The notes beneath the pieces are model-generated. The model had not been told where the DNA came from. It ran no database searches and was given only the letters and a program-made list of their open reading frames with translations. The position numbers and the translations under genes are program-made. From NCBI GenBank assembly GCA_028875875.1, contig JAGWUV010000013.1:1-64000 (forward strand): a stretch of DNA of 64,000 nt, in the 5' to 3' direction. Source of the DNA: Bacteroidota bacterium (GTDB lineage: Bacteria > Bacteroidota > Bacteroidia > Chitinophagales > Chitinophagaceae). Below are positions 54,097 through 59,598 of the stretch, piece by piece (position 1 is the stretch's first letter; each line of letters starts with the position of its first letter).

Positions 54097-54149
54097 GAGG
54101 ATTGATGAATTACGAACTAATAATTAAGAATTACGATGTATCTGGTGCC

Positions 54150-54192
54150 ACTCCTATTTTCAATGTGATGGCTTCCCGTCCTGAAGCGAAGG
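54150..54192 (+). repeat. Dispersed hairpin repeat, copy 1
   Basis: TTTTCAATGTGATGGC at 54157-54172 starts the conserved core; a short stem GCTTC (54171-54175) and GAAGC (54183-54187) follows. Copies 2 and 3 lie at 54911 and 58676. Downstream of sdaA. Confidence 0.7.
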
Positions 54193-54285
54193 ATAAATTA
54201 TAAGTTTTATGTGATTCTTGAACATATATAGTTTCATGCTGTAAAGGGCTAACAGACTGAGTAAATCTTAACAATAAAAATCTTT

Positions 54286-54837
54286 ATGTCTTATTGCGAT
54301 TACATACAAACAATGGAACCTGAAGAACGCAGGTTGTTGCATCAGCAGTATCATGATCATCATTATGGGTTTCCCATTCATAATGATGATGAACTTTTCG
54401 GCAGGCTGGTCATGGAAATAAACCAGGCCGGGTTAAGCTGGGAAACAATACTGAAAAAAGAGGCTTCGTTCCGAAAAGCATACCATGATTTTTCCATTCA
54501 AAAAGTAGCTGCTTATGGCGAGAAAGACAGGCAGCGGTTGTTGAACGATGCAGGTATCATCCGTAATAAACTTAAAATCAATGCAGCCATTGAAAATGCG
54601 AAGGCTATTATACAGCTACAGGAAGAATTCGGCTCATTTGAAAAGTGGCTGTCACATCATCATCCCAAAACCAAAGAAGAATGGGTAAAGCTTTTTAAAA
54701 AGACTTTCCGTTTTACGGGTGGTGAAATTGTAAATGAATTTCTTATGAGCATTGGCTATTTGCCCGGTGCCCATCACTCTGGTTGTTCGGTGTATCAAAA
54801 AGTGATCAGCAAGAAACCAATGTGGTTGAAGCAATAG
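54286..54837 (+). CDS. tag: DNA-3-methyladenine glycosylase I
   Basis: A 183-residue base-excision repair glycosylase that removes 3-methyladenine. C4 at the N-terminus, QQYHDHHYGFPIHNDDELF with its zinc His, and the C-terminal GAHHSGCSVY hold the four zinc ligands expected for Tag. INQAGLSWETILKKEASFR and DAGIIRNKLKINAAIENA are core segments; the catalytic-site Glu is in the LVMEIN helix. No ada or alk gene is near. The gene is full length. Confidence 0.93.
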   Translation: MSYCDYIQTMEPEERRLLHQQYHDHHYGFPIHNDDELFGRLVMEINQAGLSWETILKKEASFRKAYHDFSIQKVAAYGEKDRQRLLNDAGIIRNKLKINAAIENAKAIIQLQEEFGSFEKWLSHHHPKTKEEWVKLFKKTFRFTGGEIVNEFLMSIGYLPGAHHSGCSVYQKVISKKPMWLKQ

Positions 54838-54850
54838 GAAGTATTGTAAA

Positions 54851-54987
54851 TAGTGAATGATGAATGATGAGTGATTCTTATGTGTACAAATAATTACGCT
54901 GTTAACCATGTTTTCAATCTGATGGCCTTCCGGCTTGAAGGAATGGTGAAAAGTCAATATTGCATGATCAGTACACTCAGCATTCAT
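54851..54987. repeat. Dispersed hairpin repeat, copy 2, with flanking inverted ATGA-type repeats
   Basis: The core TTTTCAATCTGATGGC is at 54911-54926, followed by the stem CCTTC/GAAGG (54926-54941). GTGAATGATGAATGATGAGTGA lies to the left (54853 on) and an inverted, imperfect copy (TCATCACTCATTTTCAC) to the right, which runs into the last codons of the helicase gene. Confidence 0.6.
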
Positions 54988-57536
54988 CACTCATTTTCAC
55001 TTACTCGGTTTAATTGCTCTTGGTATTGTTTCCAGGCCAGCGCCAAACGGATATCTCCGTAACTAATGCTTTCATCCAGTTGGTTTTTTATGGCAGTCAA
55101 TCCTTCCTCTAATTTGTGCTCATTGATCACAGGTTCAATGGTTGACAGTTTTTCCGGTGAAAGCAATTGCTCAACGGGCAGTATTCCTGCAGCAACATAA
55201 TGTGCTAAGTGACCTTCAATAGTGGTGGTCTGTAAATTTCGTTCCTTTGCTATTGCAGCGATGGAAAGCCCTTCGCGAAACAAGCGTACGCTTTCTGCTT
55301 TGGTATCTGTCTTCTCTTTTTTATTGCTTACAATCTTCTTTTCTTTTTTGCCTGGTAGTTCATGTACCTGCGAGGCTAATCCATGCTCTTCACAATAACG
55401 ATTAATGATCTCTATAAACCCTGCTCCATATTTTTCAGCTTTGGCAGCACCAAACCCTTTTATCTTTTTTAAATCTGCCAGGCTTTGCGGCAGGTACTTT
55501 GCCATTTCATATAAGCTATTGCTGGAAACAACCATGTACACAGGGAGTTGATTGGTTTCACAAATATGGTCCCGCAAGTCTTTCAATGCCTCGTATAAGG
55601 GAGCATTAGAAATGGTCATGTACGTGTTTTTGTTGGCAGCCGCATAACTGTTTACAGTGATGGGTGGAGTGGTAAAACTTTGTTTCTGCTGCAAGTATCC
55701 ATCTATTGAGAATCCGTTCCGGCATACTTCCATGCAATGTGCTTTCTGCGCCAGCAGGATGATCAACGCATGTACATGTTCATTAAAAATTAACGAGTGT
55801 TGTTTACTATCAGTAACCACCGGGCTGTTATGCAGCGAGTTGAGAAAGGATTGTATAATGGGCAGAAAATAATCATTTGCTTGTTGCAAACGTTCCCGTA
55901 AAACCGGGTTCTCTTCAGCTGTTGATTGCTCCTGTGATAAACGGCTCAATTGTGCCTGGAATTTTTTACAAATAGTATCACAGGAAGTAATCTTGTTGCG
56001 TAACTCTTGCACAAAACCAATACTCGCTTCGTTGAAAGCATCCGCATGTTCTGTAACAACGGTAACCAATTGCTCACTATGCATCACGGCTTCTGCACAA
56101 CTAAAGAGTTGGGTGAGGATTTGCTGTTCAAAACGCGATTTTTCCCGTATCAATGCATCCGGTAAAAAGGCTGCCTGCTGTGATTGTATAAATGCCAGGA
56201 TGCGTTCATCGGTAAAAAGATTATTGCCTGAAATCCTGCTGAGCAGTACAATTCCTTCCAGCGAAATACAACGGCTGAGTGCTACATACACTTGCCCCGG
56301 TGCAAAAGCCTGCCCGGCATCAATGATGGCTTTTTCAAAAGTAAGCCCCTGGCTTTTGTGAATGGTAATGGCCCATGCCAATCGTAAAGGGTACTGCGTA
56401 AAGGCGCCGATCACTTCTTCTTCTATTTGCTGGTTTTGTTTATTCAGCGTGTAGCGTATATTCTCCCATCGGTATTTCCTTACTTCTATCTCAGCAACAT
56501 CTTCGGGGCAGCGGACTAATATTTTATCCTCTTCAATACTTTCTACAATACCGATCTTACCATTGTAAAAACGCCTTACTTTTTCTCCATCGTTTTTGAT
56601 GAACATTACCTGGGCACCTACTTTTAGTTGAAGCTGTTCTTCGGCAGGATAATTCTTTTCAGGGAAATCCTGTTCTACCTCTGCTTTAAATACTTGCATT
56701 GGTGATGTTAGCGCCCCGAGTTTTTCAGCATTGATGGTGTCGGCTTTGTGATTGTGTGTGGTGAGTGTGATGAAGCCATCCTGTTCAGTATACTGAAAAT
56801 TGGGATGGTAATGTTCCTGCAATTGTTGAAGGGCGGCACTATCTAATTGATTGATACGAACCTTATTCAGAATATCAATGAATAGGGTGTCTCTCTGCCG
56901 GTAAATGGTGGTAAGCTCAATATAGGCTGGCTGGTAAGCTGTTAAAGCCCTGCTGCTAAAAAAATATGGACTTTCATAATAGTTGGACAATATTTCCCAG
57001 TCTTCCTGTTTAGCAACAGGTGGCAGTTGAAACAAGTCCCCGATCAGCAATAACTGAACACCGCCAAAAGGCTCTGTGGGCCTGTTTCTGAAATGGCGCA
57101 ATAGTATGTCTATCTCATCCAGTAAGTCTGCCCTTACCATACTGATCTCATCGATCACCAGCAGTTCCAGTTCACGGAAAATACTGATCCTTTCCTTGGT
57201 AAGCTTGGTACGGCTCAGTAAATAATGTTTATCAATGATGGCAGTGGATGAATGTTGTTGAGTATTGCTATTGAACAGATCCTTCCTGTTGCTTTCCGGT
57301 ATAAAAGGGCCAAAAGGCAGTTGAAAGAATGAATGTATGGTTACACCACCACAATTGATTGCAGCTACACCGGTTGGTGCTACTACGGCCATTTGTTTGC
57401 GGGCTTGTTCTTTAATGTGTTTTAAGAACGTGGTCTTTCCTGTACCTGCTTTACCGGTTAGAAACACCGGGTGGTTGGTATAGTGAATAAAATCTGCTGC
57501 CAGCCTGAATTGCGTATTTGTAGTATCTGTAACCAT
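54987..57536 (-). CDS. Pif1-like superfamily 1 helicase with HRDC and RecQ-type C-terminal domains
   Basis: About 849 residues. The P-loop is GKAGTGKTT at 28-36, Walker B is VIDEISMV, and the motor continues with QLPPVAK and AWAITIHKSQGLTFEKAIID, as in Pif1/RecD-type 5'-3' DNA helicases. A central region (~460-620) is poorly conserved. Then comes an HRDC domain (LRDHICETNQLPVYMV... LKKIKGFGAAKAEKYG) and a helix-turn-helix segment (LFREGLSIAAIAKERNLQ), the pair seen in RecQ tails. Such fusion proteins occur in Bacteroidota; the in vivo substrate is unknown. I start at ATG 57536 (MVTDTTN); the upstream 14 residues are hydrophobic and unlike the family. ssb is 129 bp upstream. Confidence 0.88.
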   Translation of the reverse strand: MVTDTTNTQFRLAADFIHYTNHPVFLTGKAGTGKTTFLKHIKEQARKQMAVVAPTGVAAINCGGVTIHSFFQLPFGPFIPESNRKDLFNSNTQQHSSTAIIDKHYLLSRTKLTKERISIFRELELLVIDEISMVRADLLDEIDILLRHFRNRPTEPFGGVQLLLIGDLFQLPPVAKQEDWEILSNYYESPYFFSSRALTAYQPAYIELTTIYRQRDTLFIDILNKVRINQLDSAALQQLQEHYHPNFQYTEQDGFITLTTHNHKADTINAEKLGALTSPMQVFKAEVEQDFPEKNYPAEEQLQLKVGAQVMFIKNDGEKVRRFYNGKIGIVESIEEDKILVRCPEDVAEIEVRKYRWENIRYTLNKQNQQIEEEVIGAFTQYPLRLAWAITIHKSQGLTFEKAIIDAGQAFAPGQVYVALSRCISLEGIVLLSRISGNNLFTDERILAFIQSQQAAFLPDALIREKSRFEQQILTQLFSCAEAVMHSEQLVTVVTEHADAFNEASIGFVQELRNKITSCDTICKKFQAQLSRLSQEQSTAEENPVLRERLQQANDYFLPIIQSFLNSLHNSPVVTDSKQHSLIFNEHVHALIILLAQKAHCMEVCRNGFSIDGYLQQKQSFTTPPITVNSYAAANKNTYMTISNAPLYEALKDLRDHICETNQLPVYMVVSSNSLYEMAKYLPQSLADLKKIKGFGAAKAEKYGAGFIEIINRYCEEHGLASQVHELPGKKEKKIVSNKKEKTDTKAESVRLFREGLSIAAIAKERNLQTTTIEGHLAHYVAAGILPVEQLLSPEKLSTIEPVINEHKLEEGLTAIKNQLDESISYGDIRLALAWKQYQEQLNRVSENE

Positions 57537-57626
57537 TGAGGGTAAAGATAGGTATAGCATAAACATAACCGGAGGCATATCATGCCCGCTTTGCCTTTTC
57601 TTCCTCAGCCTCCGGTATGATGTGAT

Positions 57627-57655
57627 AAAAATGACCAGGTAGTATGGATGGTCAT
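57627..57655 (-). terminator. Terminator of ssb
   Basis: On the minus strand ATGACCA-N11-TGGTCAT is followed by TTTT. It sits right after the ssb stop (57665) and ahead of the helicase gene, so the two may be separate transcripts. Confidence 0.6.
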
Positions 57656-57664
57656 CTTAAAGGG

Positions 57665-58012
57665 TTAGGCTTTTTCCTTCTTATCTCCCGTAATAAGCAG
57701 CTCATTCACCTGAACCTGTGTAATGTATTTTTTGTTGCCTTGTTTATCGGTATAACTGCCGGATACCAGTTTCCCTTCTATGGCTACTTCCGTTCCTTTC
57801 TGCAAATGCTTTTCAGCGATCTCTGCTACCTTACCCCAGGCTACCAGCCTGTGCCATTGTGTTTCGGTTACTTTTTCACCTTTGGTGTTCCTGTATGTTT
57901 CATTGGTAGCAATATTAAAGCTGGCTACTTTTTTTCCGCCGGCGATGGTTTTGATCTCAGGTACATTTCCTAAATGTCCGATCAGTTGAACTTTGTTTTT
58001 AAGCGTGTACAT
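57665..58012 (-). CDS. ssb: Single-stranded DNA-binding protein, short form without C-terminal tip
   Basis: A 115-residue OB-fold SSB: VQLIGHLGNVPEIKTIAGGK, SFNIATNETYRN, TQWHRLVAWGKVAEIAEKHL and KGTEVAIEGKLVSGSY are typical. It ends ...ITGDKKEKA and lacks the acidic DDxxPF tip by which SSB recruits repair proteins. Some Bacteroidota carry such a short SSB besides a full-length one; the other copy would lie outside this window. It may act in a special context such as recombination or stress. The start is the ATG at 58012. Confidence 0.88.
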   Translation of the reverse strand: MYTLKNKVQLIGHLGNVPEIKTIAGGKKVASFNIATNETYRNTKGEKVTETQWHRLVAWGKVAEIAEKHLQKGTEVAIEGKLVSGSYTDKQGNKKYITQVQVNELLITGDKKEKA

Positions 58013-58027
58013 AGGTTTTACTTTTTC

Positions 58028-58049
58028 TTACAGTGCATGGGTACTGTAA
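58028..58049. promoter_or_regulatory. Inverted repeat just upstream of ssb
   Basis: TTACAGT-N8-ACTGTAA, with 7-bp arms, lies 16-37 bp before the ATG. It has the arm length and spacing of SOS-type operators but not a known LexA box; the spacer is GCATGGGT. Candidate operator of ssb. Confidence 0.4.
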
Positions 58050-58229
58050 TGGTGATGAATCGTATTTCAATCAAGTGGGGTGACGTCTTCCCGTTTTGAT
58101 GACACAAAGTTGGGATACGCCATAAGCCGTAGTCGGTTTTTAAGCGATTGTATTCATATATAAACAGGTGTAAGCGTTTGTACACGGATAAATTGTATAT
58201 TTAAAATAATAAATCTGATGTTCATGACC

Positions 58230-58607
58230 ATGCAATCAGCTGAAAGGGTTTGCAAAACCTGTAACAAGTCTTTGAAGGGCCGCTCCGATAAAAAGTTTTG
58301 TGATGATGCCTGCAGGAATGCCTATAACAATGAACTGAAAGCGAAAACATTGTACAGTCGCTATGTACGAACTGTAAACAATACCCTGCTTCGAAATCGT
58401 AAGATACTGGAAGAATTACTGGATGCCACACAGGGCATGGTGAAAGTGGGGCAGGAGAAATTATTACAGAAAGGATTTTCATTTACCTACCATACACATA
58501 CGTTCACCAATAAAAAAGGGGATACCTATTATTTCTGTTACGAATACGGATATCTGCCCTTGGATAATCAATGGTATCTATTAGTGAAAAGAAAGGAGCA
58601 GGAATAG
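58230..58607 (+). CDS. Small zinc-ribbon protein of unknown function
   Basis: About 125 residues. CKTCNKSLKGRSDKKFCDDACRNAY (in parts) holds a CxxC...CxxxC zinc site at the N-terminus, near residues 8-30 of the ORF from 58230. A coiled helix and an alpha/beta C-terminal half (GYLPLDNQWYLLVKRK) follow. The N-terminus looks like the zinc ribbons of DUF2116-like proteins; the role is unknown. ATG 58230 (MQSAERV) is preferred over one 4 codons upstream. Divergent from ssb. Confidence 0.75.
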   Translation: MQSAERVCKTCNKSLKGRSDKKFCDDACRNAYNNELKAKTLYSRYVRTVNNTLLRNRKILEELLDATQGMVKVGQEKLLQKGFSFTYHTHTFTNKKGDTYYFCYEYGYLPLDNQWYLLVKRKEQE

Positions 58608-58670
58608 GCTGTTAGGCAGCTATTCTGCTTTTATGGTTATAGTAGCAATATTATATAATTTAAAAGTTAC

Positions 58671-58808
58671 AGTTCCCTCAGGCCGGGAGGCCGTCACATT
58701 GAAAACATGAGCTGCACCGGCTTCTTTGAAAAAATAAGCTTCGCATTTTTTCAATTCCGGCAAGCCGGAACCGAACCCGCTGATGCTCAGTTTTCAATGT
58801 GGTTAGCA
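58671..58808. repeat. Large inverted repeat with nested palindrome (repeat copies 3 and 4)
   Basis: Copy 3, on the minus strand (58695-58720), reads GGTGCAGCTCATGTTTTCAATGTGACGGCC (in parts) and matches copy 1 over ~35 bp. A partner on the plus strand at 58773-58801 ends GTTTTCAATGTG. The two arms pair over about 25 of 29 positions with one bulge. In the loop lies the perfect palindrome TTCCGGC-AA-GCCGGAA (58755-58770), and GGCC-GGGA-GGCC flanks the left side (58681-58692). Confidence 0.6.
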
Positions 58809-58891
58809 GCATGACAATGGGAAAAAGGTTACTGATTATAAACACCAAAGTCATGGTATTTCTTACCAAAACAAAACTTGAAAAAATCTTA

Positions 58892-59572
58892 TTAATTCAC
58901 CAGTCTTGAGCTTTGCAGGTAGTGCTGATCAGGGGCATAAATAAACAGGCAGGAAGCATCCTGTATGGTAGCGATAATATCTTCAACTTCATCCTGTGGT
59001 ACCGCCGGACATCCCTGGCTTCTGCCTAAAAATCCCAATTGCGCAATGGCATGGGGACTAACATATTCAGCGCCGTGTAAAACAATGGCTCTTTGTTTGG
59101 CATGATCGTTAATGCCGGGCTCTATACCCTTTAATTCCAGCGATTTACCATGCTTTCCAAAATAAGGAGAGCCTGTGATGTAAAAACCCAGGCTGCTTTC
59201 GTAAGACGCATTTTTATTGGAGAAATGTTTGGCGAATAAAGTGCCCGAATTACGGCCATGGGCCACATAGGTTTGTAACACCACCTGCTGCTGCTCCATA
59301 TCAATGATAGACAGCCGTTTGGTATTGCTGGGTTTGCTGAAATCGGCAATGGTTAAATAGCGGAGGTTGTGCAAGAGGCCCCATTGTTTTAGTTTTTCAT
59401 AACCACTCAATGCCAGTTGAATCGCCTTATTGTCTATACCGAACTTTACAGCAAGATAAGAAGCGTGTGTTTCCGGGCTGTTCACAGGAACTGGTGGGGT
59501 TCTGAAAGATTGCAGGGAAAAAAACAAAAGGGTAACCGGTAAGAGGGAAAGTTTCTTCTTCAGCATAATCAT
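58892..59572 (-). CDS. L,D-transpeptidase catalytic-domain protein (murein cross-link type)
   Basis: About 226 residues: signal peptide (LSLLPVTLLFFSLQSF) and a YkuD-like domain. The active-site motif is reduced to HGAEYVS and GRSQGCPAV with the nucleophile Cys in SQGC. This matches the 'murein L,D-transpeptidase catalytic domain family' protein of Bacteroidota and may link or attach peptidoglycan. ATG 59572 (MIMLKKK) is preferred because a TAGGTTTG promoter box lies at 59591-59598, inside the longer frame. Its 3' end faces the repeat-rich spacer. Confidence 0.82.
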   Translation of the reverse strand: MIMLKKKLSLLPVTLLFFSLQSFRTPPVPVNSPETHASYLAVKFGIDNKAIQLALSGYEKLKQWGLLHNLRYLTIADFSKPSNTKRLSIIDMEQQQVVLQTYVAHGRNSGTLFAKHFSNKNASYESSLGFYITGSPYFGKHGKSLELKGIEPGINDHAKQRAIVLHGAEYVSPHAIAQLGFLGRSQGCPAVPQDEVEDIIATIQDASCLFIYAPDQHYLQSSRLVN

Positions 59573-59590
59573 GTTCACTATGGTTGGCTG

Positions 59591-59598
59591 CAAACCTA
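59591..59598 (-). promoter_or_regulatory. Putative -7 box of the L,D-transpeptidase gene
   Basis: TAGGTTTG on the minus strand fits TAnnTTTG and lies 19 bp before ATG 59572. Confidence 0.35.

What the first reader, a model, noticed from the sequence alone, without database searches (positions are those of the whole stretch)
54150..58808. Dispersed TTTTCAAT-TGA-GGC repeat, one copy forming a long stem-loop with a nested palindrome
Seen: TTTTCAATGTGATGGC at 54157, TTTTCAATCTGATGGC at 54911, and the same word on the minus strand ending near 58695; copies 1 and 3 match over about 35 bp. Each copy carries a 4-5-bp stem after the core. Between copies 1 and 3 one stem pair changes from T-A to C-G together. 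At 58695-58801 a plus-strand half-copy pairs with copy 3 over about 25 of 29 positions, and the loop holds TTCCGGC-AA-GCCGGAA. This may be a REP- or MITE-like element or a structured RNA. The stems are short and the family is small here, so a neutral decayed repeat is also possible. All copies lie within 5 kb around tag, the helicase and the zinc-ribbon gene.
Basis: partly seen in the sequence, partly recalled or inferred. Interest (0 to 1): 0.65.

Follow-up and report, generated by a model that had tools for sequence, protein, structure and literature searches.

The report
Mobile Y-shaped folded repeat of Chitinophagaceae

Summary
Confirmed and enlarged. The 16-mer is the 3' edge of a dispersed element with 10 full-length copies in this 3.5-Mb genome. 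Window copy 3 (58673-58846, minus) is intact; copies 2 and 1 are internal-deletion derivatives. Structural homologs occur in 43 of 296 Chitinophagaceae genomes (28 of 103 genera), once outside the family, and match nothing in Rfam. All share one fold: closing helix with two fixed internal loops, a three-way junction carrying two hairpins with GNA triloops, then a small GC hairpin. Of 47 pairs, 43 show two-sided compensatory change. G-U exceeds A-C 48:12 among independent clusters, so one particular strand is the selected one. In several genera the module sits inside MITE-like elements with unrelated terminal inverted repeats and 8-10-bp target duplications; own copies lack them. Outside a recent Terrimonas burst, copies lie sense to their neighbours 41:9. 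Best reading: a non-autonomous mobile repeat whose folded sense strand acts in co-transcribed RNA, ERIC-like. A single-stranded-DNA role is not excluded. REP/RAYT membership was tested and not met.

The parts
58673..58846 (-). full-length Y element (copy 3), including its less conserved 5' extension
   Evidence: 10 near-full-length genome copies; CM hit at 58676-58804, 112 bits; 5' conservation to about -45
58805..58846 (-). 5' extension (AGTAACCT...GTCATGCTGCTAAC), conserved among own-genome copies, no inverted partner
   Evidence: alignment of own copies
58790..58801 (-). P1 5' strand CACATTGAAAAC
   Evidence: fold; P1 has two-sided changes at 9 of 9 pairs across the family
58785..58789 (-). 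P2 5' strand TGAGC
   Evidence: covariation
58783..58784 (-). 2x2 internal loop, 5' side AT (partner CA at 58713-58714); T and A invariant in cluster consensuses
58773..58782 (-). P3 5' strand CAGCGGGTTC
58755..58770 (-).
58726..58754 (-). P5 hairpin TTGAAAAAATGC-GAA-GCTTATTTTTTCAA, most conserved in sequence
58715..58724 (-). P3 3' strand GAAGCCGGTG
58708..58712 (-). P2 3' strand GCTCA
58695..58706 (-).
58681..58692 (-). P6 hairpin GGCC-TCCC-GGCC
58673..58680 (-). 3' edge TGAGGGAA; conservation stops here
54882..54945 (+). copy 2: internal-deletion derivative (5' end ATTACGCTGTTAA joined to 3' end CCATGTTTTCAAT...GAAGGAAT)
   Evidence: gapped alignment score 69 against shuffle maximum 31; BLAST E 1.2e-5
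54120..54190 (+). copy 1: more decayed deletion derivative, mainly the 3' 41 nt
   Evidence: gapped alignment score 53 against shuffle maximum 38; BLAST E 4.2e-5
58892..59593 (-). L,D-transpeptidase-like gene (family name from reading the translation only) directly upstream of, and sense to, copy 3
   Evidence: of the relatives' loci that hold this gene, 19 were scanned and none has a module there

Best explanation
The feature is a copy of a non-autonomous mobile repeat, here called the Y element. Shown: (1) it is dispersed in intergenic DNA across Chitinophagaceae; (2) its copies share a ~130-nt module that folds into a Y (P1-P2-P3 helix with two fixed internal loops, three-way junction with hairpins P4 and P5, then P6); (3) pairing is kept by compensatory change while sequence turns over; (4) the selected strand is the one given here; (5) in several genera the module sits inside small TIR elements with target-site duplications, and these TIRs are unrelated to one another. 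Inferred: trans-acting transposases move the TIR-bearing copies, and own-genome copies are old insertions whose mobilising ends are lost or never existed. After insertion the sense strand is co-transcribed with neighbouring genes and folds into a long stable hairpin that changes processing or stability of the joint transcript, as reported for ERIC and NEMIS; copies in the wrong orientation are lost, giving the sense bias.
For: Copies: 10 full-length in own genome; 43/296 family genomes, 28/103 genera; 70 named contigs, titled Chitinophagaceae, Terrimonas, Ferruginibacter or 'Sphingobacteriales bacterium 44-15'. Structure: z = -5; de novo consensus fold on a MAFFT alignment recovers the Y, 26 of 43 pairs with two-sided change; named structure 94.2% paired against 78.4% shuffled and <=52% slid; 98 distinct rows, 94.1% paired, 43/47 pairs with two-sided change, covariation 0.566 against 0.175 shuffled and <=0.102 slid (that alignment is CM-fitted). 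Strand: G-U 48 against A-C 12 in 37 cluster consensuses, p = 3e-6; sense strand folds better in 81 of 97. Mobility: TIR plus perfect TSD around the module (10 bp L106; 8 bp L179, L196; 9 bp L199; 9 bp L344 with a weak TIR); 16 Terrimonas elements with 20-bp TIRs all carry it; absent beside the orthologous gene in 19 relatives' loci. Transcript: tandem neighbours 41 sense, 9 antisense, p = 6e-6; the recent Terrimonas burst shows no bias, 2:6.
Against: No expression data. Within genomes, copies decay almost neutrally (GU 30, AC 20, other breaks 34), so a host-level role of individual copies is not shown. G-U pairs are few (about 3%) and the hairpin loops are GNA triloops (46 of 57 P5 loops outside the pattern-selected set) with no GNRA or UUCG tetraloops among them; from general knowledge this fits DNA hairpins at least as well as RNA. 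Own copies have no TIR and no transposase was tied to any of the TIRs. Gene calls behind the orientation test are simple longest-ORF calls.
Confidence: 0.5

Rival explanations
1. The fold works as single-stranded DNA: a hairpin substrate for a single-strand transposase, replication or recombination enzyme, like REP/RAYT or IS200/IS605 ends. Sense bias would follow from replication or transcription direction at insertion.
For: GNA triloops closed by C-G in P5 and often P4, which from general knowledge form unusually stable DNA mini-hairpins; few G-U pairs; near-neutral decay of individual copies; TIR-less copies in own genome.
Against: No Y1 transposase in own genome, nor in G182 (one contig) or G163, which carry modules; modules near only 2 of 40 loci and 1 of 20 weaker RAYT-like loci, about 3 kb away. 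No other single-strand enzyme was searched for.
Confidence: 0.27
2. The fold has no function: palindromic repeats copied passively, pairing kept by intrastrand template switching rather than selection.
For: Individual copies decay; insertions of short GC palindromes into the loops are common (L086, L094, L102, L141, L151).
Against: Template switching would erase the fixed internal loops and the P5 bulge, yet unpaired T28, A154 and paired G155 of the alignment are invariant in 37 cluster consensuses, and G-U exceeds A-C fourfold.
Confidence: 0.1
3. A host-conserved riboregulator or free-standing small RNA that only looks repetitive.
For: Strong covariation and conserved unpaired positions.
Against: Copies vary in number and lie at non-orthologous sites; neighbours differ from copy to copy; copies sit inside TIR elements with TSDs.
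Confidence: 0.08

Closest known systems
ERIC / IRU / RU-1 (127-bp repeat of enterobacteria; PMC2229807)
   Same: Similar size, intergenic, long stem-loop fold, spread across one bacterial family; ERIC is reported to be co-transcribed with orientation-dependent effects on upstream mRNA stability.
   Different: Y-shaped three-way junction rather than one long stem-loop; no ERIC-type ends on own copies; found inside several MITE-like families with different TIRs; other phylum, no similarity claimed.
NEMIS / Correia MITEs (PMC2229807)
   Same: Small TIR element whose transcript forms a stem-loop proposed to be an RNase III target.
   Different: NEMIS has one 24-bp TIR type; here one internal module is shared among unrelated TIRs.
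REP / BIME elements and RAYTs (PMC3733652, PMC6006769)
   Same: Extragenic hairpin repeats, mostly next to co-oriented or convergent genes; used as insertion targets by IS110-type elements, as one copy is here. RAYT subclass 2.6 in Bacteroidetes is described as flanked by 'atypical secondary structures'.
   Different: 130 rather than 20-40 nt; no GTAG/CGTC-tagged 20-40-bp palindrome recognised by inspection; not linked to Y1 transposases.
CIR elements of Caulobacter/Brucella (PMC2229807)
   Same: Conserved two-armed RNA fold in an intergenic repeat.
   Different: Two separate arms joined by a linker, with a methylation motif; here a closed three-way junction.

Membership tests
MITE | terminal inverted repeats | tested here: met
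   Met in Terrimonas (16 elements, 20 bp), 44-15, G176, G205; weak in G850.
MITE | terminal inverted repeats on the copies of the window's own genome | tested here: not met
   No inverted pair between left and right flanks above shuffles in any of 10 copies.
MITE | target-site duplication | tested here: met
   8-10 bp perfect direct repeats in L106, L179, L196, L199, L344, L379, L396; Terrimonas M1 sites look TA-type, not proven; not identified in own genome.
MITE | TIRs shared with an autonomous transposon | tested here: inconclusive
   M1 TIR search in Terrimonas gave only paired ends of about 0.2-0.4 kb and unpaired ends; M3 TIR gave many sites but no transposase was tied to them.
REP/BIME | 20-40-nt palindrome with GTAG or CGTC tag | tested here: not met
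   Module is 129 model positions with no such tagged unit, by inspection of the alignment.
REP/BIME | linked RAYT / Y1 transposase | tested here: not met
IS200/IS605 decayed ends | Y1 transposase present or adjacent | tested here: not met
   Absent from own genome; adjacency no more than sporadic.
integron attC site | RYYYAAC...GTTRRRY outer boxes | tested here: not met
   Outer helix P1 changes sequence freely between genera.
integron attC site | integron integrase in the genome | not tested
   No search for IntI was made.
any Rfam family | covariance-model match | tested here: not met
   0 hits over the window at gathering thresholds; in 9 module loci only an implausible plant miRNA at E 0.11.
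ERIC-like function | co-transcription and orientation-dependent effect on mRNA | not testable with these tools
   Only the orientation bias could be measured.

The most novel reading that the evidence does not exclude
A self-contained structured-RNA (or ssDNA) cassette acts as a transferable passenger: unrelated small transposons in many genera have each acquired the same Y module because the fold gives them an advantage, for example by making insertions into operons tolerable or useful. The module, not the transposon ends, would be the long-lived evolutionary unit.
Probability: 0.28. Interest if true: 0.75.

Novelty: new variant of a known kind. Interest (0 to 1): 0.58.

Why it matters
Covariation this strong (43 of 47 pairs) in a dispersed repeat is unusual: it says that a mobile element has been selected for a particular single-strand shape over at least 28 genera. 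Because the same shape sits inside elements with unrelated ends, it offers a direct way to ask whether transposons share structural cargo, and whether that cargo acts on mRNA or on single-stranded DNA. It would also justify a new repeat or RNA family entry, since Rfam 15 gave no match and such repeats can be mistaken for short genes or regulatory RNAs.

Tried and rejected
RAYT/Y1 mobilisation: own genome negative, carriers positive but unlinked. Coding: window copies 1 and 3 continue open in one short frame, but the family turns over by compensatory change in helices, so a peptide was not pursued further. Tandem hits in G473 and the G182 254-bp array looked at first like an integron cassette array; the regions hold ordinary genes and no attC-type boxes. 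Intrinsic terminator: P6 is followed by GAGGCAAAA-like sequence, not a T run (read from the alignment; no terminator scan was run). TIRs in own genome: no pair above shuffles. Phage or plasmid carriage: no hit in viral contigs, phages or plasmids. Literature: no description of a Chitinophagaceae repeat of this kind found in the held library.

Full report
OBSERVATION. In the window alone it is barely above chance, but the whole genome (G000, 3.5 Mb, 74 contigs) shows a family: the 58.7-kb copy matches nine other places almost over its full length (84-98% identity), plus fragments. The intact copy is 58673-58846 on the minus strand. Copy 2 keeps the element's 5' end and 3' end with the middle deleted (gapped score 69, best of 200 shuffles 31); copy 1 is a weaker case of the same (53 against 38). 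Another internal-deletion copy is L043. The stem-loop at 58695-58801 is real and exceptional: -61.8 kcal/mol, z -5.05.

FAMILY. Relatives first turned up by DNA similarity and their divergent copies folded alike. An exact-pattern scan of 84,980 species genomes gave 70 contigs, all with titles that place them in or near Chitinophagaceae. A covariance model (R1) then found the element in 43 of 296 family genomes and 28 of 103 genera, with the displayed count often at its cap of about 11, in 16 of 299 genomes of the order, all in the same family, and in one genome outside the family at phylum scale (G473). It is absent from Rfam, and from the viral, phage and plasmid collections at the sensitivities used.

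STRUCTURE. On a MAFFT alignment of 18 sequences, 94.2% of cells pair, 29 of 47 pairs show two-sided change, and no shuffle of 500 reaches this; an independent de novo consensus fold gives the same Y. On 98 distinct model-aligned rows the figures are 94.1% and 43 of 47 (that alignment is fitted to the structure, so one search is the cleaner test). Anatomy: ACCA; P1 (9-12 bp); asymmetric internal loop; P2 (5 bp); 2x2 internal loop; P3 (10 bp); a junction with hairpins P4 and P5; P3', P2', P1'; P6; GAGG. P1 is rewritten between genera with pairing kept. Two unpaired loop positions (columns 28 and 154) and one paired G (155) are invariant in all 37 cluster consensuses.

STRAND. If pairing mattered only in double-stranded DNA, G-U and A-C mismatches should be equal, since each is the other read on the opposite strand. 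Among 37 cluster consensuses G-U is 48 and A-C 12 (p = 3e-6), and the sense strand folds better than the antisense in 81 of 97 copies, by 4.4 kcal/mol on average. One strand is therefore the selected single strand.

MOBILITY. In Terrimonas sp. NS-102 sixteen elements of about 204-403 bp, most near 331 bp, begin and end with the same 20-bp inverted repeat, and all carry the module. In the 44-15 genome some copies lie in a different element, TIR TCAATGTCGTTTCCTTAAG, one with a 10-bp duplication. In G176 a third, TIR GGGTGTATAAAAGTTTTTCGC, carries it with perfect 8-bp duplications at several sites; the same TIR bounds roughly 90-bp elements without the module in G288, some also with 8-bp duplications. 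G205 shows a further TIR with a 9-bp duplication; G850 a weak one. Own copies show no TIR, and none of the 19 relatives' loci scanned around the neighbouring gene has a module there. Differences among copies of one genome look nearly neutral: the fold is kept along the copying lineage rather than copy by copy.

CONTEXT. In tandem gene neighbourhoods copies are sense 41 and antisense 9 (p = 6e-6), except in the recent Terrimonas burst, 2 and 6. This is what one expects if insertion is blind to orientation and antisense copies are later lost, but the Terrimonas numbers are small and the gene calls are crude. In G182 four units of 254 bp stand between a susC-like and a susD-like gene, all sense (gene names from reading the translations).

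MECHANISM. Shown: dispersal, fold, strand, TIR/TSD association, orientation bias. Inferred: the sense strand acts as RNA in joint transcripts. For RNA speak the orientation bias and strand asymmetry. For ssDNA speak the GNA triloops, the paucity of G-U pairs and the near-neutral decay of copies. I put RNA at about 0.5 and ssDNA at about 0.27. The RAYT route, the obvious ssDNA candidate and the one suggested by the 'atypical secondary structures' reported around Bacteroidetes subclass 2.6 (PMC6006769), was tested and is not supported.

COMPARISON. It works most like ERIC or NEMIS (PMC2229807) and, as an IS110 target, like REP (PMC11208160). It is a member of none: REP fails on size/tag and on transposase linkage; MITE criteria are met in some genomes and not in the window's own. 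I therefore file it as a new variant of the small structured mobile repeats of bacteria.

Noticed in passing
L188 (G234:C221), minus strand, ORF 1754-2803: An IS110-family transposase (PF01548, PF02371) sits inside a Y module, between GTATAAGGCGCCTC and GAATCTCTTTCGG. Its 265-nt 5' non-coding end contains GTATAAGGCGCCTC, the same letters as the target's left half, as expected of a bridge-RNA target guide.
   Followed up: partly
L184 (G182:C1:4526000-4531500): Four head-to-tail 254-bp units with the module between a susC-like and a susD-like gene, all sense.
   Followed up: partly
L086, L094, L102, L141, L151, L396: Short GC palindromes such as TCCCGATAGTTATCGGGA or TCCGCCTAGGCGGA are inserted in the module's helices and loops: a second, smaller class of inserted palindrome.
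   Followed up: no
G288 and G176, e.g. L384, L387: Elements of about 90 bp with TIR GGGTGCATAAAAGTTTTTCGC, some with 8-bp duplications; 235 TIR matches in G288. No transposase identified.
   Followed up: no
L339, L340 (G473): Genome of another family with a related module: same P1-P2-P3, internal loops and P6, but a different tip without P4/P5.
   Followed up: partly
L341, L342 (G109:C3): Variant keeping only P2-P5 with other outer helices, several copies along one contig.
   Followed up: no
L081 (G025:C44:30406 and 33990): Only the 5' half of the own-genome element, one copy 100% identical over 47 nt, within another repeat that begins with a CACCAACAAC hairpin.
   Followed up: no
window 54854-54873 and 54974-54993: 20-nt inverted repeat of GAATGATGAATG type, 90% complementary, 100 nt between arms, flanks copy 2; similar GTGAATGGT runs flank some 44-15 elements.
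   Followed up: no
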